From the NCBI GenBank assembly GCA_023663685.1, contig JAMPHB010000008.1, positions 1 to 56,764 on the forward strand: a stretch of DNA of 56,764 nucleotides. The letters are read 5' to 3'. The notes under the pieces are model-generated. The model was not told the DNA's origin. It ran no database searches and saw only the letters and a program-made list of their open reading frames with translations. Below, in pieces: positions 32,021-50,226 of the stretch (position 1 is the first letter of the stretch; every line of letters starts with the position of its first letter). This DNA comes from Blautia sp. Its GTDB lineage: Bacteria > Bacillota > Clostridia > Lachnospirales > Lachnospiraceae. The translations under genes and the position numbers were made by a program.

Positions 32021-32023
32021 TAG

Positions 32024-32307
32024 TTATGGAAATCCATTTTGGAATTGTGAATGGCTGTGTGCGCAAAAGGTTCCACGCTGTCGGCTCCGGTAAATGGATT
32101 TTCTAAACCTTCTGTAAAGGATATCTTTCTTGACGCGACCGCCCGCAATTCGCCGTCGTGGCTCAGCGCGGGCTTTACGGGACGTCCATGTCCCGCAATC
32201 GCTGATGTCGTACAGAAGATTAAGAAAATCCAATTTTCTGTCGCAAAGACAGCTTTGGAAACCTTTGCGCACACAGCCATTTACAATTCCAAAATGGATC
32301 TTCATAA
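32024..32307 (+). repeat. Palindromic element, copy A (284 bp)
   Basis: Outer arms TTATGG.. (32024 onward) and ..TCATAA (to 32307) pair over about 50 bp, including ATCCATTTTGGAATTG and GGCTGTGTGCGCAAA. Inner stem GGATTTTCTaaaCCTTCTGTA pairs with TACAGAAG..AGAAAATCC. The 74-bp core (32132-32205) starts GACGCGACCGCCCGC and contains the stems GCCCGC/GCGGGC and GGGAC/GTCCC. Short open frames across it, such as one with LDATARNSPSW, are by-products. It lies between mnmA and the cysK promoter. Family not recognised. Confidence 0.9.
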
Positions 32308-32324
32308 ATAATCCCAATAACCTA

Positions 32325-32376
32325 TTGACATAGTAGGGATATAGGGATATACTCGATACTAAGAGAAATCCTACTA
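32325..32376 (+). promoter_or_regulatory. cysK: Promoter and dyad upstream of cysK
   Basis: TTGACA (32325-32330), 17-nt spacer, TATACT (32348-32353). TAGTAGGGAT (32331-32340) in the spacer is matched by ATCCTACTA (32368-32376) downstream. The AGTAGG motif also follows the -10 of the iscR operon, suggesting a shared regulator such as an Rrf2/CymR-type protein. Confidence 0.65.
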
Positions 32377-32414
32377 ATAAAGTATGAATAAGAGATATCG
32401 AGGAGGAAAACGAC

Positions 32415-33347
32415 ATGGCAAATATTTATCAGGGAACTTTAGGACTTATTGGGAACACTCCGCTGGTGGAGCTGACGCATATTGAGAAGCATTTTGGACT
32501 GGAGGCAAGGCTTCTGGCGAAGCTGGAATATTTCAATCCGGCAGGCTCTGTCAAGGACCGCATCGCAAAGGAGATGATTGAGCAGGCAGAGAAGGAGGGG
32601 AAACTAAAGCCCGGCTCTACCATTATCGAGCCTACTTCCGGTAACACGGGCATCGGTCTGGCAGCGATTGCGGCGGCGAAGGGCTACCGGCTGATTATCG
32701 TTTTGCCTGAGACGATGAGTGTGGAGCGGCGCAATATCATCAAGGCATACGGCGCTGAGCTGGTGCTTTCTGACGGCACGAAGGGAATGAAGGGTGCGAT
32801 TCAGAAGGCAGAGGAGCTGCACAGGGAGATTGCTGACAGCTTTATCCCGGAGCAGTTTGAGAATCCCGCAAATCCTGCGGCTCACCGCAAGGGCACGGGG
32901 CCGGAGATATGGAGAGACACCGACGGCGAGGTGGACGCTTTTGTGGCAGGAGTCGGAACCGGTGGGACGATTACGGGTGCGGGCGAATATCTGAAAGAGA
33001 AAAAGGCGGATGTAAAAATAATCGCGGTGGAGCCCGCTTCCTCCGCGGTACTCTCCACCGGGCAGGCGGGAGCGCACAAGATTCAGGGAATCGGTGCGGG
33101 CTTTGTGCCGAATACACTGAATACAGAGATCTATGACGAAGTGATCACAGTGGAGAACGAGGACGCCTTCGCATATGGCAAACTGATTGCGAAAGAGGAG
33201 GGCGTTCTCGTGGGAATATCCTCCGGCGCGGCACTAAAAGCGGCCGTTGAGGTGGCGAAGCGTCCGGAATTCAAGAATAAAACCGTGGTGGCGCTGCTCC
33301 CGGACAGCGGCGACCGCTACTATTCTACCGATTTGTTTAAGGATTGA
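32415..33347 (+). CDS. cysK: Cysteine synthase A (O-acetylserine sulfhydrylase)
   Basis: 310 residues. Forms cysteine from O-acetylserine and sulfide with PLP. The PLP lysine is K47 in NPAGSVKDRIA, the substrate loop is EPTSGNTGIGLA, the phosphate-binding loop is GVGTGGTITGAGEYL, and GISSGAALKAA lies near the end. GAGGAGGAAAACGAC precedes the ATG. It has its own consensus promoter, separated from mnmA by the palindromic element, and supplies cysteine to the desulfurase encoded upstream. Confidence 0.96.
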   Translation: MANIYQGTLGLIGNTPLVELTHIEKHFGLEARLLAKLEYFNPAGSVKDRIAKEMIEQAEKEGKLKPGSTIIEPTSGNTGIGLAAIAAAKGYRLIIVLPETMSVERRNIIKAYGAELVLSDGTKGMKGAIQKAEELHREIADSFIPEQFENPANPAAHRKGTGPEIWRDTDGEVDAFVAGVGTGGTITGAGEYLKEKKADVKIIAVEPASSAVLSTGQAGAHKIQGIGAGFVPNTLNTEIYDEVITVENEDAFAYGKLIAKEEGVLVGISSGAALKAAVEVAKRPEFKNKTVVALLPDSGDRYYSTDLFKD

Positions 33348-33363
33348 TTCAGAGGATTTTCAT

Positions 33364-33969
33364 TTAGTTCCCCTGCTCAAATTTGCGGATTTTCAGGTGT
33401 ACACCCCGGGAATCCGCAATTTTTTGACATGCCCGGATATCCTCCCCGGGGAGTACATCCACGATGGAGAGCTGGGTATGGGCAATCTGCTTCCCGCAGG
33501 ACTCGGCAAAATCCAGCATCGCCTCATAGGCATGGGGGAAGGAGGGGCGGGTAACTTTTTCATATTCTTCCGCGTTGGGTGCGTTCAAGCTGATAGAAAT
33601 GCTGTCCACGACACTGGCCAGCTCCGGAACAATGTCCCTGCCGTGGTAGAGATTTCCCAGCCCGTTGGAATTTACCCGAATGGGCAGTCCGGTCTTCTCC
33701 TTTACATAGCGGGCGGCGGCCAGCAGCGTTTCCAGAGCGCAGGTGGGTTCGCCGTAGCCGCAGAAGACAAATTCCCTATATCCCTTAAAATCAAAGGCGT
33801 CGATGGCGGCAAGAACCTCCTCCAGAGTCGGCTCCTGCTGGTGCCACAGCGTATCCGCATCCCCCACGCCGTCCATCTGCGAGCGGATGCAGAAAGTGCA
33901 GGCGCAGTCGCACTTGTTTGTGATGTTTGCGTAGACCTGATCGTTATATACATATAAAATCTTTGCCAT
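33364..33969 (-). CDS. Short radical SAM protein (TatD-associated type)
   Basis: 201 residues. The SAM/4Fe-4S motif is CDCACTFC (the CxxxCxxC pattern, residues about 20-27), followed by FVFCGYGEPT (glycine-rich motif binding SAM) and VRVNSNGLGNLYHGR. The length and the MAKILYVYNDQVYANITNKC start fit the TatD-linked radical SAM family (TIGR04038) as I recall it. No TatD gene lies in the window; instead it is the third gene of an operon with a probable vitamin transporter subunit and pyridoxamine kinase. Reaction unknown. Confidence 0.85.
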   Translation of the reverse strand: MAKILYVYNDQVYANITNKCDCACTFCIRSQMDGVGDADTLWHQQEPTLEEVLAAIDAFDFKGYREFVFCGYGEPTCALETLLAAARYVKEKTGLPIRVNSNGLGNLYHGRDIVPELASVVDSISISLNAPNAEEYEKVTRPSFPHAYEAMLDFAESCGKQIAHTQLSIVDVLPGEDIRACQKIADSRGVHLKIRKFEQGN

Positions 33970-33981
33970 GATATTGCCTCC

Positions 33982-34539
33982 TTAATCCTTCAAAAATTTT
34001 TTCTTAAAGCCCATCTTGTCTAAAAACAGCCCAAAAATTACAAATAAAATTGCACTTCCGCCGCTCTGAATCAGACTTCCACCCAGCAGATAAGCCAGCA
34101 GACCGCCGGAAAATCCACCCATGAAAAATACATTCGCGATATAATAACCGACCCCGCTTATGAAAAATGCTAAGATTACAGCGACTATATTGTGTACATT
34201 CACAATTTTGTTTTTTCTGCTCGTGAAGGGGAGCGCAATCAGCATTTTGATAATGATGGTCGGCAGCGTCCACATGGGAGCGGTGAGAAGATCCGCCAAC
34301 CCCCCGCCAATAGCGGCCGCAGCCAGTGCGTAGGGGGTGGGGAGCAGACATGCCGCCACATAGATCAGGCTGTCTCCAAAGTGGATATAGCCGCCGTTGA
34401 TCATATCCGGTACATGGCCGACATAGGCGGTCATCACCATAATCATGGCGGCGAAAATGGCGGTAGAGGTCAGCAGGCGCATCTGCTGACTTTCCTTTTT
34501 CTCAGCAATTAATGGTTGATTTTTAACGATATTTTTCAT
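33982..34539 (-). CDS. ECF transporter S component (probable vitamin B6-type substrate)
   Basis: 185 residues with six membrane helices, as in substrate-binding S components of energy-coupling factor transporters. The segment MVMTAYVGHVPDMINGGYIH followed by HFGDSLIYVAACLLP and GGLADLL are typical of this group. The neighbour upstream in the operon is pyridoxamine kinase, so a B6 vitamer is the likely cargo; that is inference from context. The shared ECF ATPase and T subunits are not in the window. AAGGAAGG precedes the ATG. Confidence 0.8.
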   Translation of the reverse strand: MKNIVKNQPLIAEKKESQQMRLLTSTAIFAAMIMVMTAYVGHVPDMINGGYIHFGDSLIYVAACLLPTPYALAAAAIGGGLADLLTAPMWTLPTIIIKMLIALPFTSRKNKIVNVHNIVAVILAFFISGVGYYIANVFFMGGFSGGLLAYLLGGSLIQSGGSAILFVIFGLFLDKMGFKKKFLKD

Positions 34540-34564
34540 AATTAAACCTTCCTTTAATTATATT

Positions 34565-35437
34565 TCATTCCTGCAGTCTGCGAATTCCATCAATCAGCTC
34601 CAGCAAATGCAGCTCAAAATTTACGCCGTCATTGCGGTCGGCGGAATCCTTCATGGTGTCCTCGATGCTGTGGCTGAGAAAGCGCGTGGCCAGCTCCGCC
34701 GCATCCGCTGTAGGCATACCCTGCGTGCGGCAGCCGCACATCACAGAAGAGAATAAATCTCCGGTGCCGGAAAAGTTGCAATCGAAAAAATGTGCCTGAC
34801 AGAGCTTTGCACCGTCCGGGGTGAGGGAGAGATTGTAGATCAGAGGCTGCTCCTGTCTGCGGCATTTAATCCCGGTGATAACCACATCCTGCGGCACAGC
34901 CGCCATGGAACGGAGGATTTCGGCGGCGCTTTTCGCAAGGGCAAGAGTCTGCTCTGCGCCTTTGCATCCACGAATCCTTTCGATTGGAATGTCCGCCAGC
35001 AGGCAGGCCTCTGTGAGATTCGGCGTAATCAGATCCGCCTGCCGGGAGAGTTCCTTCATACCGGCAAGCAGTCCGTCTGAGTACATAGTGTAAACCCTGC
35101 CGTCGTCTCCCATCACAGGATCTACGAGGAGAAGCGTGCCGTTTTCCCGGAAATGGGCAAGGAAATCCAGCACATGGCCAATCTGCCCGGAGCCGGTCAG
35201 AAAGCCGGTGTAGATGGAATCAAAATGTGCGCCGTTTTGTTCCCAGACGCTAGTGTAGCGGGGGAGCATATCTGTCAGGTCGGTGCAGTAGTAATGGGGA
35301 TATCCGGTTTGTCCGGTGAGAACGGCAGTAGCCAGCGGACAGCACTGTACGCCGAGGGCAGACAGTACTGGCAGCGCGGCTGTAAGAGAACATTTCCCGA
35401 AGCCGGACAGATCGTTGATAACCGCTGCTTTTTTCAT
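34565..35437 (-). CDS. Pyridoxamine/pyridoxal kinase family protein
   Basis: 290 residues, ribokinase superfamily. The start KKAAVINDLSGFGKCSLTAA, the TGQTGYPHYYCTDLT segment, VDPVMGDDGRVYTMY and the anion-hole GTGDLFSSVMCG near residue 225 match Clostridia pyridoxamine kinases, which phosphorylate B6 vitamers toward PLP. The open frame runs to 35500, but the ATG at 35437 follows GGAGG. First gene of the minus operon, divergent from the CarD gene. PLP is the cofactor for both NifS and CysK encoded just upstream. Confidence 0.9.
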   Translation of the reverse strand: MKKAAVINDLSGFGKCSLTAALPVLSALGVQCCPLATAVLTGQTGYPHYYCTDLTDMLPRYTSVWEQNGAHFDSIYTGFLTGSGQIGHVLDFLAHFRENGTLLLVDPVMGDDGRVYTMYSDGLLAGMKELSRQADLITPNLTEACLLADIPIERIRGCKGAEQTLALAKSAAEILRSMAAVPQDVVITGIKCRRQEQPLIYNLSLTPDGAKLCQAHFFDCNFSGTGDLFSSVMCGCRTQGMPTADAAELATRFLSHSIEDTMKDSADRNDGVNFELHLLELIDGIRRLQE

Positions 35438-35542
35438 GGAACAGACCTCCTTCCCGTTTTTAACTATTATATCCCGAACTGACATTATGTACATATCCAA
35501 AATGATACAAAATTATATGACCAGATGAATGTAAAGTATTTT

Positions 35543-35571
35543 TTGAAAAATGCGGATAAATATGATACAAT
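35543..35571 (+). promoter_or_regulatory. Promoter of the CarD gene group
   Basis: TTGAAA (35543-35548), exact 17-nt spacer, TACAAT (35566-35571), 60 nt before the ATG. Confidence 0.7.
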
Positions 35572-35631
35572 ATGGACAAAGTGCGTACCTTGCACAGAAT
35601 ATAAGGAAATGTCCGATAGACGGGGGAAAGC

Positions 35632-35922
35632 ATGTTTGAGAAAAAGCAGGTGATTTACAGCGAGACGCAGGGTGTATGCCGTGTAGATAATATCGTCTCC
35701 CTCTCCGCCGCGCGGGGAGAGCCGGGAGTACCCTACTATGTGCTGCGCTCGGTGTTTGACAGGGAGAAGGTGGCATACATTCCGGTGGACAACCATCAGG
35801 TCATGCTGCGGGAGCTCTTTAGCGAGGAGGAAGCCCGGGCACTGGAGCAGGACAGCGAGGCGCTCGCGAAGGACGAGAGGCTTAAGGAAGCCGTAGATTA
35901 TGTGTTACATAAGGAGGATTGA
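35632..35922 (+). CDS. CarD family protein (short, RNA polymerase-interacting)
   Basis: 96 residues; it contains mostly the CarD/TRCF RNA-polymerase-interacting domain: FEKKQVIYSETQGVCRVDNI at the start, then PYYVLRSVFDREKVAYIPVD, and a short helical tail. Full CarD proteins are about 150-160 residues, so the DNA-binding helical domain is largely missing. It may bind the beta subunit of RNA polymerase and tune initiation. Its stop lies two bases before the next start, so it is co-translated with an Arg-rich protein. Confidence 0.85.
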   Translation: MFEKKQVIYSETQGVCRVDNIVSLSAARGEPGVPYYVLRSVFDREKVAYIPVDNHQVMLRELFSEEEARALEQDSEALAKDERLKEAVDYVLHKED

Positions 35923-35924
35923 CG

Positions 35925-36470
35925 ATGGCGCAGCAGCAGGCGATACATAAGTTTGTATTGGGAAGCAAAGAAGTAGAGGGAAAAGAGGCCGAGTTCGGCT
36001 ACGACAAGGGCTGGTACAGTATCACAAATATCGTGGGCGAGGAGCGGGAGGTCATCTACCGCTCGAGAAACGCGCAGGAGGCTTATGCAAAGTGGAATGT
36101 GTACATAGGCAGGAAAAAGGAGCGTCCCGTGCAGGAGGAGCGCCGCAGGGGCGAGCCGGGAGAGGGAAATGAGCGCAGGAGCGAACGCGGCGAGCGCCCG
36201 GCCAGAAGCAGCCGTGAGGGCTGGGAGAGCCGCAGGGAGCAGAACCACAGGAGCCCGCAGGGAAGCCGGGACAACAACGGGGAGAACCGTGGGGAGAACC
36301 GTGGGGACAGAAATTACAGAGATCGCAGCAAAAGCCGTCCGGGCCGGGATAATGCGCGGGGAGAGCGCCGGGAGCGGGAGGTGCCGGGCAACCGGGAGGT
36401 TCGCCGTGACAGACGCCGCAACCGGGGCGACAGAAGCCGCCGTGACCGCGAATACACCGAGCAGGAGTAG
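35925..36470 (+). CDS. Arg-rich protein with disordered repetitive tail (unknown)
   Basis: 181 residues. The first 65 form a compact-looking domain (IHKFVLGSKEVEGKEAEFGY, DKGWYSITNIVGEEREVIYR); the remaining 115 are low complexity, rich in Arg, Glu, Gly, Asn and Ser with short repeats such as GENRGENRGDRN and RRDRRRNRGDRSRRD. Such RG/RE-rich tails bind RNA in eukaryotes; in bacteria similar tails occur on RNA helicases and RNase partners. The gene overlaps no neighbour but lies between CarD and rhomboid in one tight run. AAGGAGGATTGACG precedes the ATG. No family recognised. Confidence 0.75.
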   Translation: MAQQQAIHKFVLGSKEVEGKEAEFGYDKGWYSITNIVGEEREVIYRSRNAQEAYAKWNVYIGRKKERPVQEERRRGEPGEGNERRSERGERPARSSREGWESRREQNHRSPQGSRDNNGENRGENRGDRNYRDRSKSRPGRDNARGERREREVPGNREVRRDRRRNRGDRSRRDREYTEQE

Positions 36471-36473
36471 GCG

Positions 36474-37082
36474 ATGAGGGAAAATAAACCTTATGTCACC
36501 TATCTGTTTTTGGCTCTCAATATTATCGTGTTTTTTGTGCTGGAAAAAATGGGCAGCACAGAATATGATATGGATTTTATGATTAGGATGGGCGCTGTCT
36601 GGCCGGAGAATATCAGGGAGAATGGGGAATACTGGCGGCTTTTGACGGCAGCCTTTCTGCACTTTGGTTTCGAACATCTCCTCAACAATATGCTGCTTCT
36701 CTTCTGTGCAGGACCGATTCTTGAGAGGGCGATGGGACATGTCCGGTATTTCATTCTCTATCTCTGTGCCGCAGTCGGAGGCTGCAGCCTGAGCTATCTG
36801 TACATGCTCCGCACTGAGGACTATGCCGTGTCGGCGGGAGCCTCCGGCGCCATCTTCGGCGTGATTGCCGGGCTGCTGTGGGTCGTGGTGCAGAACCGGG
36901 GACATTATGAGACGCTGACAGACTGGGGAATTCTTTTTATGATCGTACTCAGCCTGTACATTGGAATCACTTCCGCAGGAGTGGATAACTGGGGGCATAT
37001 TGGAGGGCTGCTGACGGGCTCCCTGCTCAGCGTCATTCTATATAGGAAAAAACCGAAAGGAGTAGAAGGATATGAAAATTAA
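36474..37082 (+). CDS. Rhomboid family intramembrane serine protease
   Basis: 202 residues with six membrane helices. The nucleophile motif is SAGASGAIFG (Ser in GASG), the partner His is in WGHIGGLLTG, and the HFGFEHLLNNM segment with its His/Asn is also conserved. It cleaves membrane proteins inside the bilayer. Three bases after the Arg-rich gene; its stop lies inside the next gene (11-nt overlap). Substrates unknown. Confidence 0.93.
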   Translation: MRENKPYVTYLFLALNIIVFFVLEKMGSTEYDMDFMIRMGAVWPENIRENGEYWRLLTAAFLHFGFEHLLNNMLLLFCAGPILERAMGHVRYFILYLCAAVGGCSLSYLYMLRTEDYAVSAGASGAIFGVIAGLLWVVVQNRGHYETLTDWGILFMIVLSLYIGITSAGVDNWGHIGGLLTGSLLSVILYRKKPKGVEGYEN

Positions 37083-38061
37083 CGTATACTATGGCGGCCG
37101 GGGTCTGCTGGATGACCCTACGCTGTATGTTTTGAATAAAATGGAGGGTGTGCTGCGGGAGCTCCGGGTCGATGTGGAGCGTATCAATATCTACGAGCAC
37201 AAAAATGAGATCGCGACGCTGCCCCAGACCTTCAAGGAGGTGGACGGCATCATACTGGCGACCACCGTGGAATGGCTGGGAATCGGCGGCTACATGCAGC
37301 AGTTTCTGGACGCCTGCTGGCTCTACGGCAATAAGGAAAAGATTCACTCTACCTATATGCAGCCCATTGTCATGTCCACCACCTACGGAGAGAGGGAGGG
37401 GGAACTGGCGCTGGAAAATGCCTGGGAGTTTCTGGGCGGCCTGCCCTGCGAAGGTCTCTGTGGCTATGTGGAGGATCTGGTGTCTTTTGAGATGAGCCAG
37501 GACTACAATGTGATTATTGAAAAAAAGGCGGAGAATCTCTACCGGACGATATCGCAGAAAATCAAGAGCCTGCCCACCAGCAATCAGGCAGTGAAGCAGA
37601 GTGTGCTGCGGACGCAGCAGCTGAACCTGACGCCGCAGGAGAGCGAGCAGCTTTCGAAATATGTGTCGGACGATACCTATGTAAAAAAACAGAAGGAGGA
37701 TATCGAGGAGCTGGCGACCATGTTCAAGGACATGATGGAAAAGACCGCGCCTGAGGAGGGAAGTCCCTACATTCAGGAGCTGGAGTCCCACTTTATTCCG
37801 ACAGAGGATTTCAGCGCCAGCTATTCCTTCCTTATAGAAGATATGAAAACACCGCTGTATGTGTCTGTGGAGAATGATGAGCTGACAATTCGCTATGCCG
37901 AGGAGGAAAATGTGGATGTGATTGCAAAGCTCAGCAGGGATGTGCTGCAGTCCATCGTGGACGGGCGCATGACCTTCCAGCGGGCCTTTATGACAGGGGA
38001 CATGACGGCGAAGGGGAACTTTAAGACGCTGCGGATGCTGGATCAGGTTTTCAATTTTTAA
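37072..38061 (+). CDS. Flavodoxin-like domain fused to SCP2 sterol-binding-like domain
   Basis: 329 residues. Residues 1-170 look like an NADPH-dependent FMN reductase/flavodoxin fold (MKINVYYGGRGLLDDPTLYV, VDGIILATTVEWLGIGGYMQ); the central part is helical; residues about 240-329 end in an SCP2-type lipid-binding domain (LYVSVENDELTIRYAEEENV, FQRAFMTGDMTAKGNFKTLR). Reaction unknown; it may be a lipid-linked reductase. It overlaps the rhomboid gene by 11 nt, so the two are translationally coupled. Family calls are moderate. Confidence 0.75.
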   Translation: MKINVYYGGRGLLDDPTLYVLNKMEGVLRELRVDVERINIYEHKNEIATLPQTFKEVDGIILATTVEWLGIGGYMQQFLDACWLYGNKEKIHSTYMQPIVMSTTYGEREGELALENAWEFLGGLPCEGLCGYVEDLVSFEMSQDYNVIIEKKAENLYRTISQKIKSLPTSNQAVKQSVLRTQQLNLTPQESEQLSKYVSDDTYVKKQKEDIEELATMFKDMMEKTAPEEGSPYIQELESHFIPTEDFSASYSFLIEDMKTPLYVSVENDELTIRYAEEENVDVIAKLSRDVLQSIVDGRMTFQRAFMTGDMTAKGNFKTLRMLDQVFNF

Positions 38062-38085
38062 GCAATAGGAAAGGAGAGGGAGGCA

Positions 38086-38496: not shown

Positions 38497-38515
38497 GGAA
38501 TATGCTTATCAGTAT

Positions 38516-38555
38516 AAAAGCCTGCGGTACGGGAAATCCCGCGCCGCAGGCTTTT
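38516..38555. terminator. Bidirectional terminator between HIT and murG
   Basis: AAAAGCCTGCGG / CCGCAGGCTTTT, perfect 12-bp stem with an inner CGGG/CCCG stem and A and T runs at both sides; genes on either side converge. Confidence 0.92.
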
Positions 38556-38558
38556 GAT

Positions 38559-42800: not shown

Positions 42801-43459
42801 GCCAGGTGGTGCGTATGCGTCAGATGCTGGAGAAGGAGACCGATGAGAATTACCGGAAAAATAAGCTGCAGGTACTGGCGGAGCTTACAAGGCTTCGGCA
42901 GATCTGCTGTGACCCGTCGCTTTTGTTCGAGGATTACACGGGGGAATCTGCGAAACGGCTGGCGTGTCTGGAGCTGATTGAGAGCGCCATGGAGGGCGGG
43001 CACAAGATGCTCGTGTTCTCCCAGTTCACTACCATGCTGGAGCTGCTGGAGCAGGATTTGAAGCAGAAAGGCATTGCATTTTACAAGATTACCGGCGTTA
43101 CCTCGAAGGAGGAGCGGATTCATCTGGTCAAGGCATTCAATGGGGACGAGACGCCGGTGTTTTTGATTTCCCTAAAGGCGGGGGGAACGGGACTGAATCT
43201 GACCGGGGCGGACATTGTGATCCACTATGACCCGTGGTGGAATCAGGCGGTGCAGAACCAGGCCACGGACCGGGCGCACAGAATTGGGCAGGAAAAGGTC
43301 GTGTCGGTGTACCGGCTGATCGTGAAGGATTCCATCGAGGAGAAGATTCTTAAGATGCAGGAGGGCAAGGCGAATCTTGCAGACGAGATTTTAAGCGGCG
43401 AGATGGGAGGTCTTGCGGCGCTGAGCAGGGAAGAGCTGATGGAGCTGCTGGCGGTGTGA
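39803..43459 (+). CDS. SWIM zinc finger / SNF2-family helicase
   Basis: 1218 residues. The N-terminus has a SWIM zinc finger (CDCPYAQDGKRCKHMAALLF near residues 54-73); the middle (to about 720) is the 'SNF2 helicase-associated' region; the SNF2/helicase core follows: Walker A ILADDMGLGKTLQVI, DEAQ box (IIDEAQYIKN), and motif V-VI SLKAGGTGLNLTGADIVIHY then QATDRAHRIGQ. It is an ATP-driven DNA translocase, often near defence genes or repair. The last 40 codons have a second, decayed copy at 44774, after an inserted gene pair. Full length and intact. Confidence 0.94.
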   Translation: MEWSYLFSQNILSRGRQYFIKGRVTNLQQEGAKYTAEVIGTKPYYVEAAFASGKRPSLSCDCPYAQDGKRCKHMAALLFAVAEKFAPSQTDSGSKLSINRQIHPFVKPEEYSYFDFSKITDAYRIMEKDYKAAQKLIESGAVALRDFQIGYVSQIHAEGMVVEAEAECKLTPSRGSVGILFDHAQIHKMLCFVGGCKVNFDNRWGVYSRPQKLCPHAIALLLLAQERIEREHLGDATDLEARRLLKAFQSERRANVAEENQALTERVRLEPRLEWSLSMLQLSVRCGTSKLYVVKNFPELVEAVEKRGTLPQGKSSMLDFALCEFDRDSLELYQFIRRVIREEEARDRNSQTGSRYAAGGDEIVNRIGLYGGRLDQFFALYCGRAIPFSDKFHAAKKDMVLKLEEGAVRLKITVDAEEDAGGIFHGVRVTGRMPEILYGLEHTYLYREDKLIKITGECERGLRPLMELAEYTGRLDMVIGRRNLSEFYYRVLPRLSEFADVSIEKKQEIERYLPPEAVFVFYLDAEDGNVICTAKVVYGEEEFDLIDWRIADLPKAAVRDVQEEIGTLEVVEALFPERDWANKSFHCGQDADAVYHFLNTGLSQLMELGMVETTDRFRRLKIRDHAKVTVGVSVHSDIMDLEVLSEDLTQEELLDILFHYKRKKKYYRLRNGDFLDLENESLMELAGMMEALRISPKDFVKGKMHLPLYRALYLDKMLEQNEDIYAERDKNFKKLVKEFKTVKDSDYELPAELKDTMRNYQKYGFRWLCTLRENHFGGILADDMGLGKTLQVISVLLSDKESGGGGTALVVCPASLIYNWREEFLRFAPELTVAVLAGKKEERMALLGGYENWDVLVTSYDLLKRDIDVYEGKHFSYQIIDEAQYIKNQTTAAAKAVKLVDSRVRYALTGTPIENRLSELWSIFDFLMPGFLYSYESFRRDFEAPITKSKDEQATVQLRRMVSPFILRRLKKDVLKDLPEKLEEVQYAHMEEAQRQVYDGQVVRMRQMLEKETDENYRKNKLQVLAELTRLRQICCDPSLLFEDYTGESAKRLACLELIESAMEGGHKMLVFSQFTTMLELLEQDLKQKGIAFYKITGVTSKEERIHLVKAFNGDETPVFLISLKAGGTGLNLTGADIVIHYDPWWNQAVQNQATDRAHRIGQEKVVSVYRLIVKDSIEEKILKMQEGKANLADEILSGEMGGLAALSREELMELLAV
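43339..43374 (+). repeat. 36-bp direct repeat, left copy (inside helicase 3' end)
   Basis: Starts GGAGAAGATTCTTAAGATGC and continues CAGGAGGGCAAGGCGAA. It matches 44774-44809 at 34 of 36 positions. Lies 85 bp before the helicase stop. Confidence 0.8.
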
Positions 43460-43536: not shown

Positions 43537-43585
43537 ATAAATCACTTCATTTACGAAAACATGGCGGAAAGGAAAAAGAGAAGGT

Positions 43586-43816: not shown

Positions 43817-43817
43817 T

Positions 43818-44426: not shown

Positions 44427-44487
44427 TATTGCTTGTGGCTGTAGTAAAGGACAACCTAAAGGTTGGGGCTATAGAATTCCCCTAAAG

Positions 44488-44522
44488 AAAATCGCTGAAA
44501 CCGTGAGACTTCAGCGACTTTT
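44488..44522 (+). terminator. Terminator after the ImmA/IrrE-type gene
   Basis: TCGCTGAA / TTCAGCGA (44492-44499 and 44510-44517) with flanking A and CTTTT. A second stem CAACC-TAAA-GGTTG lies upstream near 44451-44464. Confidence 0.7.
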
Positions 44523-44531
44523 GCTATAATT

Positions 44532-44772
44532 ATGTGTCTGAAAAGAGGAGATTCTATAATAATATTTCGATATATTTTAAATGAATACAGACAGCTTGGG
44601 GTTATATACAGAGATAAAGAATCCATAGACGATGTACTATCGCTGGAGATGTGTATGATAAATTTGTCTTCAGCGGGGTGGCTACGAAGCTTTTGGATTA
44701 TTTTCTGATTCAGTAGAGGGAAAGGGAAAAATAGCACCCATTGATGAAAAATTGTTGGAATATTGGGAGTAA
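44532..44772 (+). pseudogene. Decayed small gene (two frameshifts), third gene of the island
   Basis: Three reading-frame pieces lie head to tail in different frames: MCLKRGDSIIIFRYILNEYR to SIDDVLSLE, then GDVYDKFVFSGVATKLLDYF, then SDSVEGKGKIAPIDEKLLEY-WE with TAA at 44770-44772. Joined, they give an acidic protein of about 75-80 residues that reads like real coding sequence. The joins need single-base losses or gains near 44648 and 44706. Family not recognised. It lies between the ImmA/IrrE-type gene and the second 36-bp repeat. Confidence 0.5.
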
Positions 44773-44773
44773 A

Positions 44774-44809
44774 GGAGAAGATTCTTAAAATACAGGAGGG
44801 CAAGGCGAA
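44774..44809 (+). repeat. 36-bp direct repeat, right copy (decayed helicase 3' end)
   Basis: Starts GGAGAAGATTCTTAAAATAC, two changes against 43339-43374. Similarity fades after that (GCGGGCGGGATTCTA against CAGACGAGATTTTAA), consistent with an older duplicate of the helicase end. Could be an insertion-site duplicate or the end of a lost second helicase. Confidence 0.7.
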
Positions 44810-44933
44810 CTTCGCGGGCGGGATTCTATCAACATTGGACTGGCAGACTGGCAAAGATCAGTCCTTGTCAACGCCATAAACACATATAGCTGGACGAAGC
44901 GGTGCAGTCTGTCAGGAATAATGAAAAATGGAG

Positions 44934-44968
44934 GGTGCTAGACATCCGGCGGATGTCTGTTCAGCACC
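44934..44968. repeat. Compact hairpin inserted in transposase remnant
   Basis: GGTGCT-AGACATCC-GGC-GGATGTCT-GTTC-AGCACC: two nested perfect stems of 6 and 8 bp. It is part of about 55 nt (44935-44989) that interrupt the otherwise typical transposase text between NNEKWR and DYMTLQM and shift the frame. Confidence 0.6.
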
Positions 44969-45028
44969 GACCGGAACGAAGTGGAGAAGGATTATATGAC
45001 ATTGCAGATGAATTATCAGGAAAAATAT

Positions 45029-45124
45029 GAGCAGGGAATCGCACTGGGAAAAGAGCAGGGAATTGCACTGGGAAAAGAGCAGGGAATCGCACTGGGAAAA
45101 GAGCAGGGAATCGCACTGGGAAAA
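45029..45124 (+). repeat. Four tandem 24-bp repeats (EQGIALGK units)
   Basis: GAGCAGGGAATCGCACTGGG plus AAAA, repeated four times at 45029, 45053, 45077 and 45101, with a single change in the second copy, followed by a partial fifth (GAGCAGGGC). In frame they encode EQGIALGK, a coiled-coil-like repeat usual in the tail of Rpn-like transposases. Confidence 0.9.
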
Positions 45125-45341
45125 GAGCAGGGCAGAATGGAAGAACGTATCTCCTGCATTGCGGGATTTCTAAAAAACGGGAGGAACCGAACGCAGGCAA
45201 TCCTTCTTTTGAATGCATCGGAGCAGGAACTCCAGAAGGCAGAGGAGCTTCTTGGAAGCAGTAGGTAATACCTCCTTCGGAGGCATTACAGGTGTCGAAA
45301 CTTGCGGTCGATTATGTATTTTGTTTGAGAGCCGTATCTAC

Positions 45342-45388
45342 TATAATTATGCGTAGAAGCTTTCTGTTATTACTCGGGCGGAGTAATA
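45342..45388 (+). promoter_or_regulatory. TATAAT box and leader hairpin of the 102-residue gene
   Basis: TATAAT at 45342-45347 (weak TTGTTT at 45321, spacer only 15), then TATTACTC-GGGCG-GAGTAATA (45368-45388), a perfect 8-bp stem in the leader, 24 nt before the ATG. Confidence 0.4.
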
Positions 45389-45412
45389 GGATACGGGACA
45401 AGGAGGATACAT

Positions 45413-45721
45413 ATGTCGGAGATGATTTTGTTTGTGCAGACCTACAGTCAGACGATTTTGACGGGGATTTTCTGGCTGGTGCTCTTAGTGCTTCTGGTGA
45501 ACCAGCTCAGGCTTTTGCGCCGGACGAAAAGGCTGCAGAAGAGCCTTGACGGGATTGTGGGGAAGGTCAGGGAGTACCTTGCAGTGGTAATGGAGGCGGA
45601 GGAGGCGGGAGAGGAACCGGAGCATAAGCTGCAGGCAGAGGGGGGAATGCAGGACGCCGATCGCAGCGAGGAGGAGAACAGCCGCATTATTTCTGCGATG
45701 CTGCAGGAAATTTTCCCATAA
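45413..45721 (+). CDS. Small membrane-anchored protein (102 aa), unknown
   Basis: Single membrane helix at residues about 14-32 (QTILTGIFWLVLLVLLVNQL), a positively charged stop-transfer stretch (RLLRRTKRLQK), then a helical, acidic cytoplasmic tail to FP. AAGGAGGATACAT gives a strong ribosome site. The tail (VGKVREYLAVVMEAEEAGEE) suggests coiled-coil pairing. Function not recognised. It lies just upstream of pgi but has its own promoter-like elements. Confidence 0.75.
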   Translation: MSEMILFVQTYSQTILTGIFWLVLLVLLVNQLRLLRRTKRLQKSLDGIVGKVREYLAVVMEAEEAGEEPEHKLQAEGGMQDADRSEEENSRIISAMLQEIFP

Positions 45722-45735
45722 GCACCGCTTTTTCC

Positions 45736-45764
45736 TTGATTAACCAGCTGCACTCTGCTAAAAT
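45736..45764 (+). promoter_or_regulatory. pgi: Promoter of pgi
   Basis: TTGATT (45736-45741), 17-nt spacer, TAAAAT (45759-45764) with a TGC extension directly before it. Confidence 0.7.
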
Positions 45765-45810
45765 ACATAAGGTAAGATAAGTTTAACCTTTTGAAAAAGG
45801 AGTGGGGAAT

Positions 45811-47154
45811 ATGAGTAAGGTCACGTTTGATTATTCTAAGGCAGATGTTGTCAGCAGGGAGGAAATCTCTTATATGGAAAAGCTTGTCGCTGACGCGAAG
45901 GAGCAGCTGGTTTCCAAAACGGGAGCGGGCAACGATTTTTTAGGCTGGATTGATCTGCCCGTCGATTATGACAAGGACGAGTTTGCGCGCATTAAGAAGG
46001 CGGCCGCGAAGATCCAGTCGGATTCCGAGGTGCTGGTAGTGATTGGCATTGGCGGTTCCTATCTCGGCGCGAGAGCAGCGATTGAATTTTTACGGCATGG
46101 ATTCTATAACAATCTGCCGAAGGAGGTTCGTGGAACCCCGGAGATTTATTACGCTGGAAACAGCATTAGCAGCACCTATTTGAAGGGACTTGTGGACGTG
46201 ATCGGAGACCGGGATTTTTCCGTGAATATTATCTCTAAGTCCGGCACCACCACGGAGCCTGCGATCGCGTTCCGCGTGTTTAAGGAGATGCTGGAGAAAA
46301 AGTACGGCAAGGAAGGTGCGGCGAGCCGCATCTATGCCACCACCGACAAGGCAAAGGGTGCGCTCAAGAACCTTGCCAATGAGGAGGGCTACGAGAGCTT
46401 TGTGGTTCCCGATGATGTGGGTGGACGCTTCTCAGTATTGACGGCAGTTGGTCTGCTTCCGATTGCGGTCAGCGGCGCGGACATTGATAAATTGATGGAG
46501 GGCGCGGCAGAGGGAAGGAAGCTTGCATTAGAGCAGCCCTTTGCAGACAATGACGCGCTTCAGTATGCGGCAGTCCGCAATATTCTGCTCCGCAAGGGTA
46601 AGAGCATCGAGGTGCTGGCGAACTATGAGCCTTCCTGCCATTATGTGTCAGAATGGTGGAAGCAGCTCTATGGAGAGAGCGAGGGCAAGGATCAGAAGGG
46701 TATTTTCCCGGCATCCGTCGATCTGACCACGGATCTGCACTCGATGGGACAGTTTATCCAGGACGGCGCACGGCTGATGTTTGAGACGGTGCTGAATGTG
46801 GAGACTTCCCGCGAGAAGGTTGTGCTTGGGGAGGAGCCGGTAGATCTGGACGGCCTGAACTATCTGGCGGGCAGGGACATGGATTTTGTCAACAAGAGCG
46901 CCATGAATGGCACGATATTGGCACACACAGACGGAAATGTTCCGAATCTGATGATCAAGGTGCCGGAGCAGAACGAATTCTATCTCGGCGAGCTCTTCTA
47001 TTTCTTTGAGTTTGCGGTGGGTGTCAGCGGATATCTTTTAGGAGTGAATCCCTTCAACCAGCCGGGTGTGGAGAGCTACAAGAAGAACATGTTTGCACTT
47101 TTGGGCAAGCCGGGCTACGAGGAGGCGCGGGAAGCCCTGCTTAAGAGACTGTAA
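45811..47154 (+). CDS. pgi: Glucose-6-phosphate isomerase
   Basis: 447 residues, the short form found in Firmicutes. Interconverts glucose 6-phosphate and fructose 6-phosphate in glycolysis. Signatures include [57 protein letters not shown], and [18 protein letters not shown] near the C-terminus. The GTG at 45802 is in frame, but AAAGGAGTG fits the ATG at 45811. Single gene with its own promoter and terminator. Confidence 0.97.
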
Positions 47155-47169
47155 TATCATATAGGATAT

Positions 47170-47195
47170 AAAGGGGCTGTGAAAAGCCCCTTTTA
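47170..47195. terminator. Terminator after pgi (overlaps end of convergent gene)
   Basis: AAAGGGGCT / AGCCCCTTT stem (47170-47178 and 47185-47193) then TAT. The left arm can also pair with CACAGCCCCTT at 47208-47218, which is coding sequence of the convergent gene, so two hairpins compete. Confidence 0.8.
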
Positions 47196-47196
47196 T

Positions 47197-48003
47197 TCAG
47201 CCTTTTCCACAGCCCCTTAAATATCCGTTTTCTGTAAGCCAGTCTGCGGATTGTTTCAATGCTTCTACGGTTTTTGTCTCGACCACACATCTGCAGTTAT
47301 ACATTTCTGCAATTGCAAGTCTCTGCTTAAGATCAATATTTCCACTCCCCAGCGTCATGTGATTCTTTTTGCCAAGACCGTCATGTATATGAAAATGCGT
47401 AAGCTTTTGCTTTCGTTCTATAAGAAAGGGCTCGTCGATATCGTCCGCCGCGTGGGAGTGACCGATATCCCACGTCAGATAAAACGCGGGACTCTCCAGA
47501 AGCATGTCGATGGCATTTTTCTCAAATTCCCGGTATCCGTCTGTATTTTCGATACAGATGCGAAGATTTTCCCCACCGATGGCATCTTCGCACATTTTCC
47601 GGAATTCCTGCCAGGCTTTGCGGTAGCTGTCGGAGTATTTTTCAAAAAGATATACCTTTTTGTCCGGCAGAGTAAAGTATACGCCGGGGTGCATATGCAG
47701 GTTCAGAATGGGCACGGAGAGCTTTTTGGCGGCCTGAATCGTCCGAAATACAGTGTCCGTGTAGGCTTTTGCCACCAGTTTATTAAAATCGCAGACGTTC
47801 AGATTTTCGTCCAGATGAATCGTAAAATATATGTCATATCTGGCTTTTAACTCCGACAGGATATCCGTTTCCTCTAATTTCTCAAGCTGGCAGGAGGGAA
47901 GATTCATATTCAGTTCTATAAATTGAAGTCCCAGATCCTGGCAGAGCTCCGCCGTCTCCTCCAGAGAATCCAGTTCTATCAGGGTCGGCATTCCATAATC
48001 CAT
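47197..48003 (-). CDS. Sugar phosphate isomerase/epimerase (xylose isomerase-like TIM barrel)
   Basis: 268 residues. Acidic and His residues in barrel strands are visible: LQFIELNMNLP, YFTIHLDENLNVC, NLHMHPGV, LRICIENTDGY, LTWDIGHSHAADD and THFHIHDGLGKKNHMTLGSG, typical of the AP_endonuc_2 / sugar isomerase family with a divalent metal. Substrate unknown. The start at 48003 has AAAGGAGACAACTTT. The open frame runs to 48300, but its first 99 codons come from palindromic element B and are not real. Convergent with pgi. Confidence 0.88.
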   Translation of the reverse strand: MDYGMPTLIELDSLEETAELCQDLGLQFIELNMNLPSCQLEKLEETDILSELKARYDIYFTIHLDENLNVCDFNKLVAKAYTDTVFRTIQAAKKLSVPILNLHMHPGVYFTLPDKKVYLFEKYSDSYRKAWQEFRKMCEDAIGGENLRICIENTDGYREFEKNAIDMLLESPAFYLTWDIGHSHAADDIDEPFLIERKQKLTHFHIHDGLGKKNHMTLGSGNIDLKQRLAIAEMYNCRCVVETKTVEALKQSADWLTENGYLRGCGKG

Positions 48004-48087
48004 AAAGTTGTCTCCTTTCCGAATTGCTGTCAGGGAGATTATAACATGTGGAGATGGAAAAAGGAAGAGCTTCCCGCAAATCGCCCG

Positions 48088-48357
48088 GAAAGCCGGTTGG
48101 CAGCGGATGGCGGTGTGCGCAAAAGGATTCACGCTATCAGTTCTGTCAAATGGATTTTCTAAGTGTTCTGAGAAGGCCGCATTTCTTGACGCGACCGCCC
48201 GCAATTCGCCGTCGTGGCTCAGTGCGGGCTTTGTGGGACGTCCATGTCCCGAAATCGCTGATTCTGTACAGAACACTAAGAAAATCCAATTTTCCGACAC
48301 AAGGATAGCGTTGAAATCTTTTTGCGCACACCGCCATCCGCTGCAAACTGGCTTTTC
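48088..48357 (+). repeat. Palindromic element, copy B (270 bp)
   Basis: Outer arms GAAAGCCGGTTGGCAGCGGA... and its partner ending ..GGCTTTTC pair over about 45 bp including GCAGCGGATGGCGGTGTGCG. Inner stem GGATTTTCTAAGTGTTCTG pairs with CAGAACACTAAGAAAATCC. Core 48188-48261 is 74 bp, identical to copy A at all but four positions. It lies between the TIM-barrel gene and the promoter of the cell-wall hydrolase. Confidence 0.9.
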
Positions 48358-48489
48358 TCGCGTAGCGGCTGTAACATATTTTCAATATTTAGAAACAGCG
48401 AAATGAGAGCAATTATGTGGTCTGCGCCCATTTTTTTCGCAAATTTTGGCAAAAAGTGGAGAGAAAAATCCAAATTTTCACCAAAATGA

Positions 48490-48518
48490 TTGACATGGCA
48501 CTTTCTCTGTGCTACAAT
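48490..48518 (+). promoter_or_regulatory. Strong promoter of the cell-wall hydrolase gene
   Basis: TTGACA (48490-48495), 17-nt spacer ending in TGC, TACAAT (48513-48518). A leader of about 100 nt follows; 48358-48489 holds nothing else that I can recognise. Confidence 0.8.
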
Positions 48519-48624
48519 ACCCGTCGTAACAAAGTTGTAATATTTGAAATAAAGTGTTTAAAAAGGTGACATATGTGTGAGATTTATTGCATAGAATGCA
48601 CCTAGAAAATGCGGAGGTTCAGAC

Positions 48625-49860
48625 ATGAAGGCAAGTAAGAAGATGATAGAGGGTATCGCAGTTGCAGGACTTGTGGCGGCACTTACAATCACATCCATTA
48701 CTACAAATGGCGAAAGCGCCGTGGGGCGTGAGTATACAACCGAGTTAGAGCAGAACGGAGTCGCAGGGATTGCAGCCACCATCAATGCATACGGGGTGGA
48801 GGCAGCAGACGAGCTGGATCTGGCAGTCTATGTTGAAAAGGAGGAGCTTACGATGGTAGCGGCCTCCGGTGAGGAAGCGGCAGAGCAAAAGAGCACCGTC
48901 GCAGAGGAGACAGAGCCCGCCATAGAGGAGGAACTTACCTCAGAGGAAGAGGAGTGGCAGGATAAGCTGATGGCGGATGTCAAGGATTTTCTGTATGTTC
49001 GGGAAAAGCCGGATGCGGACTCTAAGATTGTCGGCAAGATGTATAAGGGCGACCGCGCAGTGATAAAAAAAGAGGGCGATACCTGGACAAAAATTGCCTC
49101 CGGCAATGTGAAGGGTTATGTAAAGAATGAATACTGTCTCTTTGGACAGGATGCACTTAAATATGCAAAAAAGCACTGTGATACCGTGGCGAAGGCGACG
49201 ACGAACGGACTCCGCGTCCGCAGTGAGGCAGATGAGAATGCGAGTGTCGTTAAGGCGCTGGCCTCTGGAGATAAGCTGATTGTAGATAAAAAAGCAGATG
49301 AGATTAAGGGCTGGGTAGCCGTGAAGGTGAACTCTAAGACCTGCTATGTCAGCGCAGAATATGTAACAGTAAAACTGGATACGGGCAAGGCTGTGACTCT
49401 TGAGGAGGAGGCAGCGGCGCAGGCAGCTCAGGCAGCAGCGTCCTCGAACTCCGGCTCCGGTTCCGGCTCTGGCGGACAGACCTCCAGTCCGGGAACGACG
49501 CAGGGGCCGTCCTTAGCGGCAAGTGCAGATGAGGTGACACTTCTGGCTGCGCTGGTTCAGTGTGAGGCGGGCGGCTGTGGTACAGAATGCATGACAGCCG
49601 TTGGTGCGGTAGTTCTGAATCGTGTGCGGAGCGGAAATTTCCCGAACAGCATATATGGTGTGATATATCAGAGCGGCCAGTTTGGACCGGCGTCCTCCGG
49701 CAGATTAGAGCAGCGGCTGGCAGCCGGTGTAAGCTCCAGCGCAAAACAGGCGGCGCAGGCAGCCATAAATGGAGCGGATCCCACCGGGGGAGCAAAGTAT
49801 TTCAAACTTGCTTCCAGCGGACACGACGGAGTTGTGATTGGACCGATTGTATTCTATTAA
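48625..49860 (+). CDS. Secreted cell-wall hydrolase with two SH3b domains (SleB-type)
   Basis: 411 residues: signal sequence (GIAVAGLVAALTITSITTNG), an acidic linker, two bacterial SH3-like domains (about 112-170, FLYVREKPDADSKIVGKMYK, and about 190-255, LRVRSEADENASVVKALASG), an Ala/Ser/Gly-rich hinge, and a C-terminal SleB/CwlJ-type hydrolase_2 domain (LLAALVQCEAGGCGTECMTA, AVVLNRVRSGNFPNSIYGVI). The Glu in QCEAG is the likely catalytic residue of this lysozyme-like lytic transglycosylase family. GCGGAGG precedes the ATG. Probably acts in vegetative wall growth or sporulation/germination. Confidence 0.92.
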   Translation: MKASKKMIEGIAVAGLVAALTITSITTNGESAVGREYTTELEQNGVAGIAATINAYGVEAADELDLAVYVEKEELTMVAASGEEAAEQKSTVAEETEPAIEEELTSEEEEWQDKLMADVKDFLYVREKPDADSKIVGKMYKGDRAVIKKEGDTWTKIASGNVKGYVKNEYCLFGQDALKYAKKHCDTVAKATTNGLRVRSEADENASVVKALASGDKLIVDKKADEIKGWVAVKVNSKTCYVSAEYVTVKLDTGKAVTLEEEAAAQAAQAAASSNSGSGSGSGGQTSSPGTTQGPSLAASADEVTLLAALVQCEAGGCGTECMTAVGAVVLNRVRSGNFPNSIYGVIYQSGQFGPASSGRLEQRLAAGVSSSAKQAAQAAINGADPTGGAKYFKLASSGHDGVVIGPIVFY

Positions 49861-49873
49861 AAGAAGCAGTGTG

Positions 49874-49915
49874 AGCGGAGCTTCTGGTTTAATGCCAGAG
49901 GCTCCGCTTGTTTTT
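49874..49915 (+). terminator. Terminator of the cell-wall hydrolase gene
   Basis: AGCGGAGCTTCTGG / CCAGAGGCTCCGCT, 14-bp stem with one T-G mismatch and a TTTAATG loop, followed by TGTTTTT. Confidence 0.9.
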
Positions 49916-49941
49916 GCGGGGATAAAATCAGAAAGCGGCTT

Positions 49942-50226
49942 GCCGCGGGAATCCCCTATGCAGCGGGCGGCGGCGAAGCGCGGGGTGGATTTCAAAGCTA
50001 TCTTTGTGGCGGAAAATTGGATTTTCTTAATGTTCTGCGCAGAATCAGCGATTGCGGGACACGGATGTCCCGTAAAGTCCGCACTGAGCCACGACGGCGA
50101 ATTGCGGGCGGTCGCGTCAAAGGATACAAACTTTCCAGAACATTTAGAAAATCCATTTGACAAAACCGATAGCGTGAATCCACCCCGCGCTTCGCCGCCG
50201 CCCGCTGCATAGGGGATTCACGCGGC
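49942..50226 (-). repeat. Palindromic element, copy C (285 bp, opposite orientation)
   Basis: Near-perfect outer arms of about 59 bp: GCCGCGGGAATCCCCTATGC from 49942 pairs with GCATAGGGGATTCACGCGGC ending at 50226; they also hold GCGGGCGGCGGCGAAGCGCG. Read on the minus strand it has the same order as copies A and B: stem AAATGTTCTG/CAGAACATT and the 74-bp core (50045-50118). Only the core and inner stems match the other copies; the outer arm sequence is new. Between the hydrolase terminator and the argF promoter. Confidence 0.92.

What the first reader, a model, noticed from the sequence alone, without database searches (positions are those of the whole stretch)
32024..50226. Three copies of an unrecognised ~280-bp palindromic element with a fixed 74-bp core
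Copies at 32024-32307, 48088-48357 and 49942-50226 (opposite strand) share one layout: outer arms, an inner stem, and a central core of exactly 74 bp in all copies (32132-32205, 48188-48261, 50045-50118). The core has two small stems, GCCCGC/GCGGGC and GGGAC/GTCCC. The elements sit between genes, next to promoters. They match no family I can name (not an IS, group II intron or typical REP). Could be a mobile miniature element, a structured RNA, or a binding site.
Basis: partly seen in the sequence, partly recalled or inferred. Interest (0 to 1): 0.88.

Follow-up and report, generated by a model that had tools for sequence, protein, structure and literature searches.

The report
Known RNA inside flipping DNA palindromes
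The three repeats are copies of an RNA already catalogued as TwoAYGGAY, whose job is not proven; what is unexpected is that each copy sits in a long DNA palindrome of its own, and that the centre of some of these has turned round in place between closely related bacteria.

Summary
All three copies are Rfam RF01731 (TwoAYGGAY RNA; 103.8-111.1 bits, cut-off 43). The genome holds 15 copies; 13 of 36 genomes of the genus, own included, hold 1 to at least 38. Function is unproven; CsrA binding has been proposed (PMC4333381).

Added here. (1) Beyond the Rfam model most copies have ~50-nt outer arms that are private to the copy yet complementary to each other. (2) The core inverts in place: 6 of 23 shared sites in one sister pair, and window copy 3 against sister G448. 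Arms also change together more than chance. Template switching between the arms would explain both. (3) Within the class, all 12 sampled families with TwoAYGGAY have CsrA, against 11 of 48 without; inside families there is no such link. (4) In the window's species the second GGA loop is lost in 15 of 15 copies. No clean empty site was found; absent alleles in close relatives keep element pieces. Known RNA, unexpected DNA behaviour, function likely but unproven.

The parts
32021..32075 (.). Copy 1, outer arm (low-coordinate side)
   Evidence: Inverted repeat I4, 89% complementary to 32256-32310
32082..32246 (-). Copy 1, TwoAYGGAY RNA (RF01731, model 1-168)
   Evidence: 111.1 bits, cut-off 43, E 4.3e-19; same orientation at the orthologous site of sister G448
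32184..32189 (-). Copy 1, hairpin A loop ATGGAC, the GGA loop that resembles a CsrA site
   Evidence: AYGGAY closed by 6 Watson-Crick pairs; only 3 AYGGAY of 104 in the window are closed by 5 or more, one in each copy
32256..32310 (.). Copy 1, outer arm (high-coordinate side)
   Evidence: Inverted repeat I4
48082..48129 (.). Copy 2, outer arm (low-coordinate side)
   Evidence: Inverted repeat I5, 88% complementary to 48315-48362
48138..48302 (-). Copy 2, TwoAYGGAY RNA (RF01731)
   Evidence: 103.8 bits, E 2e-17; absent in sister G448, which keeps a piece of one arm
48240..48245 (-). Copy 2, hairpin A loop ATGGAC
   Evidence: AYGGAY closed by 5 Watson-Crick pairs
48315..48362 (.). Copy 2, outer arm (high-coordinate side)
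   Evidence: Inverted repeat I5
49934..49991 (.). Copy 3, outer arm (low-coordinate side)
   Evidence: Inverted repeat I3, 95% complementary to 50177-50234
50004..50168 (+). Copy 3, TwoAYGGAY RNA (RF01731)
   Evidence: 108.3 bits, E 1.8e-18; inverted relative to its flanks in sister G448
50061..50066 (+). Copy 3, hairpin A loop ACGGAT
   Evidence: AYGGAY closed by 6 Watson-Crick pairs
50177..50234 (.). Copy 3, outer arm (high-coordinate side)
   Evidence: Inverted repeat I3

Best explanation
The three elements are dispersed copies of the TwoAYGGAY structured RNA (Rfam RF01731), each embedded in a near-palindrome of about 270-300 bp. Shown: family membership, 15 copies here that cluster apart from those of related species, compensated base pairs in the core, arms that are private to the copy but complementary, and inversion of the core in place at some sites. 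Inferred: at the DNA level replication switches template between the arms (or the hairpins recombine); this copies one arm onto the other, so private arms stay complementary while they drift, and now and then it turns the centre round. Inferred: at the RNA level the conserved product is a hairpin pair that presents GGA loops of the kind the regulator CsrA binds, so a transcribed copy would bind or titrate CsrA; in this species only hairpin A keeps its GGA loop. How new copies arise is not explained.
For: RF01731 at 103.8-111.1 bits; 15 copies in own genome; 32 of 38 pairs with compensated changes. Inner stem: 42 G.U against 11 A.C mismatches in the RNA sense (p 2e-5, with G014/G016 orthologues both counted; the four genomes are 5:1, 5:2, 15:2, 17:6), as expected if this strand is read as RNA. 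Outer arms: own-partner score 29-33.5 against 6-8 for other copies' arms; own partner best in 36 of 38, 33 of 33, 18 of 19 and 14 of 15 copies of four genomes. Inversion: 6 of 23 shared G014/G016 sites, each flipped core nearest to its own orthologue, and window copy 3 against G448. Marks next to the core change sides in flipped pairs (22 swapped columns in 6 flipped pairs, 1 in the others). Concordant arm changes: 18 seen, 1.3 expected; in G448 copy 1 a block of one arm has the other arm's form. Template switching is reported to homogenise arms and invert the spacer of inverted repeats (PMC8604942, abstract and section list only). CsrA: 30 of 35 positive genomes against 35 of 125 negative; 12 of 12 families against 11 of 48.
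Against: No transcript was examined, and the antisense strand folds nearly as stably (-148.3 to -182.5 against -151.8 to -187.7 kcal/mol). Orientation to neighbouring genes shows no rule, so many copies may not be read in the RNA sense. Inside TwoAYGGAY-bearing families negatives are as often CsrA-positive (22 of 25), and in the genus CsrA is in 12 of 13 genomes with and 20 of 23 without the element, so the CsrA link could be ancestry or motility. Five of 35 positive class genomes lack a CsrA match: G235, G277, G316, G333 (80-95% complete) and G378 (98%). Hairpin B's GGA loop is lost in all 15 copies here. The CsrA-like string ACANGGANGT also occurs twice in the window outside the copies. Outer-arm mismatches show no overall strand bias (137:110), but G016 leans to G.U (68:22) and G004 the other way (12:38), which I cannot explain. 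One shared site holds quite different elements in the two sisters (distance 0.77), which this model does not explain. G014 is, by its contig lengths, a draft metagenome assembly, so some flips could be assembly errors; exact inverted stretches in the six flipped pairs are 13-51 nt, not measured for G448.
Confidence: 0.55

Rival explanations
1. Non-autonomous transposable palindrome (MITE- or REP-like) spread in trans by a transposase; the RNA fold is incidental.
For: 0 to at least 38 copies per genome within one genus; copies cluster by species; part of the G014/G016 copies share end motifs, GTAAGG on the left and CCGTA on the right, and a 20-nt end pattern with up to 3 mismatches occurs 15 times in G016 and 9 in G014 against 2 and 0 for the reversed control; one shared site holds two different elements.
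Against: No Y1 transposase in 7 of 13 element-bearing genomes of the genus, own genome, G014 and G016 among them; outer arms differ between copies; no clean pre-insertion allele: the five absent or partial alleles in close relatives keep element pieces, and no target duplication was evident by eye; no plasmid or phage match of copy 1, and 0 of 5 viral pattern hits is RF01731. Core pairs are compensated. Transposase families other than Y1 were not searched for.
Confidence: 0.25
2. The outer arms are part of one long functional RNA hairpin, kept complementary by compensatory selection rather than by DNA-level copying.
For: The full elements fold at -151.8 to -187.7 kcal/mol; G016 outer arms favour G.U over A.C (68:22); PMC7657543 reports that covariation extends the helix of this family (passage).
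Against: Overall G.U:A.C in the outer arms is 137:110 (p 0.10) and reversed in G004, unlike the inner stem (42:11). Selection on an RNA helix does not predict in-place inversion or a block of one arm taking the other's form (copy 1 in G448).
Confidence: 0.2
3. Site-specific invertible switch (inverton): a dedicated recombinase turns the core.
For: In-place inversion at 6 of 23 and 1 of 3 comparable shared sites in two sister pairs.
Against: The outer inverted repeats share little sequence between copies (identity 0.52-0.62; shuffled 0.40-0.46 in three of the four genomes), so one recombinase could hardly recognise them by sequence there; a conserved site nearer the core was not excluded.
Confidence: 0.08

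Closest known systems
TwoAYGGAY RNA (Rfam RF01731)
   Same: Covariance model matched end to end (1-168) in all 15 copies of this genome; same stems and hairpin A loop.
   Different: Hairpin B has lost its GGA loop in 15 of 15 copies here. High copy number and in-place inversion are not mentioned in the passages I read; a poorly conserved external stem is (PMC4333381 figure legend), and PMC7657543 extends the helix.
CsrA-binding sRNAs (CsrB, CsrC, RsmX/Y/Z)
   Same: GGA in hairpin loops; proposed for TwoAYGGAY in PMC4333381; CsrA encoded in this genome (2 matches).
   Different: One or two GGA hairpins per copy and many copies per genome, instead of many sites in one RNA (the latter partly recalled); no independent transcript shown.
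Inverted repeats remodelled by template switching (quasipalindromes)
   Same: Arm homogenisation and spacer inversion, as stated in the abstract of PMC8604942 (yeast).
   Different: Here a multi-copy element carries a conserved RNA as the spacer and inverts at several sites; the mechanism itself is inferred, not shown.
REP/MITE palindromic repeats
   Same: Dispersed, mostly intergenic, palindromic, multi-copy.
   Different: No Y1 transposase in own genome, G014 or G016, no clean empty site found, compensated RNA core.

Membership tests
TwoAYGGAY RNA (RF01731) | Covariance-model score at or above the gathering cut-off of 43 bits | tested here: met
   111.1, 103.8, 108.3 bits; 15 of 15 genome copies over the cut-off
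TwoAYGGAY RNA (RF01731) | Compensated base pairs in the core stems | tested here: met
   32 of 38 predicted pairs have both-sided kept changes over 70 cores of three genomes; R-scape was not run
TwoAYGGAY RNA (RF01731) | AYGGAY-type GGA loop in hairpin A | tested here: met
   14 of 15 copies of this genome, 35 of 36 in G016, 15 of 19 in G004, 9 of 10 G014-only copies
TwoAYGGAY RNA (RF01731) | AYGGAY-type GGA loop in hairpin B (the second of the two in the name; Rfam's own criterion is the model score) | tested here: not met
   0 of 15 copies here; 31 of 36 in G016, 16 of 19 in G004, 7 of 10 G014-only copies. Filed as a variant member on the model score, not on the name
CsrA-binding sRNA | CsrA encoded in the genome | tested here: met
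   2 matches in own genome
CsrA-binding sRNA | Several GGA hairpins per RNA | tested here: not met
   At most one of the two hairpins per copy in this genome
CsrA-binding sRNA | Binds CsrA; independent transcript | not testable with these tools
   Needs binding assay and RNA-seq
REP/RAYT or IS200/IS605-derived repeat | Y1 transposase in the genome | tested here: not met
   0 in own genome, G014, G016; 7 of 13 element-bearing genomes of the genus have none
MITE | Target-site duplication and clean empty site | tested here: inconclusive
   Five absent or partial alleles in close relatives keep element pieces; no true pre-insertion allele could be read
Inverton (site-specific invertible element) | In-place inversion between alleles | tested here: met
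   6 of 23 G014/G016 sites, 1 of 3 G000/G448 sites
Inverton (site-specific invertible element) | Conserved recombinase site shared by the copies | tested here: inconclusive
   Outer arms are private to each copy; the inner stem was not searched for a site

The most novel reading that the evidence does not exclude
TwoAYGGAY elements are a genome-wide set of invertible riboregulators: each palindrome can turn its core round in place, and so decides whether neighbouring transcripts carry a CsrA-binding RNA; arm homogenisation keeps the copies able to turn even though the arms drift.
Probability: 0.12. Interest if true: 0.85.

Novelty: new variant of a known kind. Interest (0 to 1): 0.5.

Why it matters
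TwoAYGGAY has been in Rfam without a proven function; the passages read treat it as an RNA fold. In-place inversion and private complementary arms make it a natural case in which a DNA-level mutation process may keep an RNA-bearing palindrome intact and flip it. The family-level match with CsrA makes the published CsrA hypothesis directly testable in cultured commensal Lachnospiraceae. It also warns that complementary changes in such arms are not by themselves proof of RNA selection, since arm copying produces them too.

Tried and rejected
Transposition by an IS200/IS605 or RAYT enzyme: PF01797 absent from own genome, G014 and G016, and from 7 of the 13 element-bearing genomes of the genus; 6 of the 13 (G004, G022, G023, G027, G028, G031) do have it. 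Phage or plasmid spread: no match of copy 1 in either collection; the five viral pattern hits are not RF01731. Clean empty sites: sought at G014-only and G016-only copies and in G448. Of the five absent or partial alleles read, four look like deletions that leave part of the element; at the fifth (G014 C15_27148) G016 keeps a left-end piece but the right flank does not match. At the copy 3 site the more distant G005, G010, G025 and G027 show no element, but too little aligns to read a junction. Cis-regulation of a fixed neighbour: neighbours in the window are unrelated and genes lie in all orientations (for +|+, +|-, -|+, -|-: G016 16/8/6/8, G014 8/8/6/11, G004 4/7/2/6); genes there are crude longest open frames. 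My first hairpin count took the loop too short and counted false A.C pairs; only the arm and inner-stem figures of that call are used, and hairpins were recounted. A link between CsrA and TwoAYGGAY inside families was looked for and not found.

Rows dropped before counts: the two intron-split G016 copies from the identity part and; the replaced pair C16_94699/2999324 (25 concordant, 8 single columns): without it the totals are 18 concordant and 91 single, with it 43 and 99; the intron-split pair C7_6500/2053357 gave no columns. The tree covers 22 of the 23 pairs, warns of long branches, and gives the G004 branch no support. The 23 pairs are those whose flanks matched, out of 38 G016 and 33 G014 copies; two were matched by one flank only. 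In one search the best 38 candidates per genome were scored, so the 38 of G016 is a floor; only the best 7 were, so copy numbers there are floors too. CsrA was searched in 125 of the 355 class genomes without a TwoAYGGAY match, nine of them picked because they share the window's family and the rest in handle order. Six G448 stretches were fetched; three of the copies in them (L298, L299, L301) had no partner among the 15 own copies.
Full report
WHAT IS THERE. The repeat search finds the three copies at the stated places, 83-88% alike over 194-216 nt, each with arms of 48-58 nt that are 88-95% complementary. Rfam names all three: RF01731, TwoAYGGAY RNA, 111.1, 103.8 and 108.3 bits against a cut-off of 43, full length, on the minus strand for copies 1 and 2 and the plus strand for copy 3. 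The constant core is real: between fixed anchors 73 nt in 14 of 15 genome copies, 72 in one.

WHAT WAS KNOWN. The 2010 discovery paper lists TwoAYGGAY as a probable RNA, probably neither cis-regulatory nor a riboswitch, from human gut, gamma-Proteobacteria and Clostridiales (PMC2864571, one table passage); Rfam types it Cis-reg. [quoted passage not shown] PMC11701678 lists it among families whose structure R-scape improved (passage); PMC7657543 says covariation extends its helix (passage); PMC11661157 discusses the stability of its two hairpins (passages). Searches for TwoAYGGAY, RF01731 and AYGGAY gave these five, PMC7682815 (holds the accession; not opened) and two papers on other subjects by title. 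In the passages read, none mentions copy number within a genome or inversion.

DISTRIBUTION. The window's genome has 15 copies, all over the cut-off. Of 60 genomes searched, own included, 13 hold it: 13 of 36 in the window's genus and 0 of 24 from other families of the order. Copy numbers run from 1 to at least 38, the latter in a single-contig 3.4-Mb genome (G016) for which all 38 scored candidates matched. In the same search 14 well-known control genomes gave none. Across the class 36 of 391 genomes, own included, match at E 0.001 and 27 over the cut-off. In a quick tree of 103 cores the copies split by species: 15 of 15 of the window's genome (support 100), 69 of 69 of the sister pair G014/G016 (95), 19 of 19 of G004 (no support), with a warning about long branches.

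THE RNA. On 70 cores from three genomes 38 pairs are predicted, 32 with both-sided changes that keep the pair. In the inner stem mismatches in the Rfam sense are G.U 42 times and A.C 11 times (p 2e-5, relatedness not corrected; G.U leads in each of the four genomes), which points to that strand being read as RNA. The GGA loop of hairpin A is kept in 14 of 15 copies here, 35 of 36 in G016 and 15 of 19 in G004; hairpin B's is lost in all 15 here but kept in 31 of 36 and 16 of 19. In the whole window an AYGGAY closed by at least five Watson-Crick pairs occurs three times among 104, once in each copy; the recalled CsrA-like string ACANGGANGT occurs five times, three of them in the copies.

THE ARMS. 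Outside the Rfam model the outer 50 nt of each copy pair with their own partner (median score 29-33.5) and hardly with other copies' arms (6-8). Own partner is best in 36 of 38, 33 of 33, 18 of 19 and 14 of 15 copies; two G016 copies are split by an intron, which probably accounts for the two exceptions there. Core identity between copies is 0.74-0.84 and outer-arm identity 0.52-0.62; shuffled arms give 0.40-0.46 in the three genomes where this was run. Outer-arm mismatches show no overall strand bias (137:110), with opposite leanings in G016 and G004.

INVERSION IN PLACE. G014 and G016 share 23 sites that I could match by flanks, mostly 94-99% identical, two of them by one flank only. At 6 the core is turned relative to both flanks, and in each of the 6 the turned core is nearest to its own orthologue (distance 0.007-0.091), so it is the same copy turned, not another one inserted. 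At one of the other 17 the element has been replaced (distance 0.77), and at one an intron splits the G016 copy. The window's genome has a sister, G448 (91% over the copy 1 region). There copy 1 has the same orientation, a further shared copy (locus L009) too, copy 3 is inverted (0.915 identity when turned, against 0.835 collinear with the flanks), and copy 2 is gone apart from a piece of one arm. In flipped pairs an asymmetric mark next to the core changes sides; in the two pairs where the alignment also holds an outer asymmetric mark (G014 C10_14095 and C31_3731) that mark stays, which puts breakpoints inside the arms.

ARM HOMOGENISATION. Leaving out the replaced pair, 18 columns changed concordantly in both arms where 1.3 are expected if arms change independently (p 6e-15); flipped pairs have relatively more (11 concordant to 31 single, against 7 to 60; p 0.04). 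The expectation is a simple one that treats columns as independent. In the G000/G448 pairs there are 4, 5 and 1 concordant columns against 11, 8 and 1 single, and in G448 copy 1 a block next to the core on one arm has the other arm's form. The abstract of PMC8604942 describes these two outcomes, arm homogenisation and spacer inversion, for template switching between inverted repeats in yeast. Compensatory selection on an RNA helix could give concordant changes but not inversions.

CSRA. CsrA is found in 30 of 35 TwoAYGGAY-positive class genomes (own genome left out) and in 35 of 125 negatives (p 1.3e-9); with positives over the Rfam cut-off only, 22 of 26 (p 1e-7); by family 12 of 12 against 11 of 48 (p 1e-6). 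Inside the positive families negatives are also mostly CsrA-positive (22 of 25). In the window's genus CsrA is in 12 of 13 genomes with the element and 20 of 23 without. So, in this sample, TwoAYGGAY is confined to families with CsrA; shared ancestry or motility could cause this too. In six Eubacterium and Roseburia genomes csrA was found at a motility locus (PMC3720852, passages).

GAIN AND LOSS. I found no insertion event that can be read base by base. Five absent or partial alleles in close relatives keep element pieces. Y1 transposases are missing from the own genome, G014 and G016. How copies spread is open.

VERDICT. Ordinary as to identity: a known Rfam RNA, here a variant with one GGA loop. 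Less ordinary as to behaviour: private, self-complementary arms and in-place inversion, seen in two separate sister pairs. CsrA binding is the best-supported function but unproven.

Noticed in passing
L098 and L058 (G016:C1 near 2053357 and 2184758): The same group II intron (flanks 100% alike over 1730 nt) sits at the same position in two TwoAYGGAY copies of G016; an open frame with YADD lies in the one read. A partial core at G016:C1:2406519 may be a third. The element may be this intron's home site.
   Followed up: partly
window 45029-45148: Tandem repeat of a 24-nt unit (GAGCAGGGAATCGCACTGGGAAAA and variants) in a stretch with only short open frames.
   Followed up: no
window 43338-43393 and 44773-44828: A 56-nt direct repeat at 84% identity, 1.4 kb apart, the first near the end of a 1218-aa frame.
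   Followed up: no
G014:C16:94699 and G016:C1:2999324: Orthologous site with matching flanks and the same outer ends, but with quite different arms and core (distance 0.77): replacement, or a second insertion at one spot.
   Followed up: partly
G016, G014, G004, G021, G028: pairs of copies 0.3-0.8 kb apart: Copies recur as close pairs in the order minus then plus (for example G016 613736/614033 and 2296099/2296552; G004 C1 96346/96933), an arrangement not explained here.
   Followed up: no
L044 (G000:C29:50050-50187): Second, weaker CsrA match (55.1 bits) in the window's genome besides the main one (91.7 bits).
   Followed up: no
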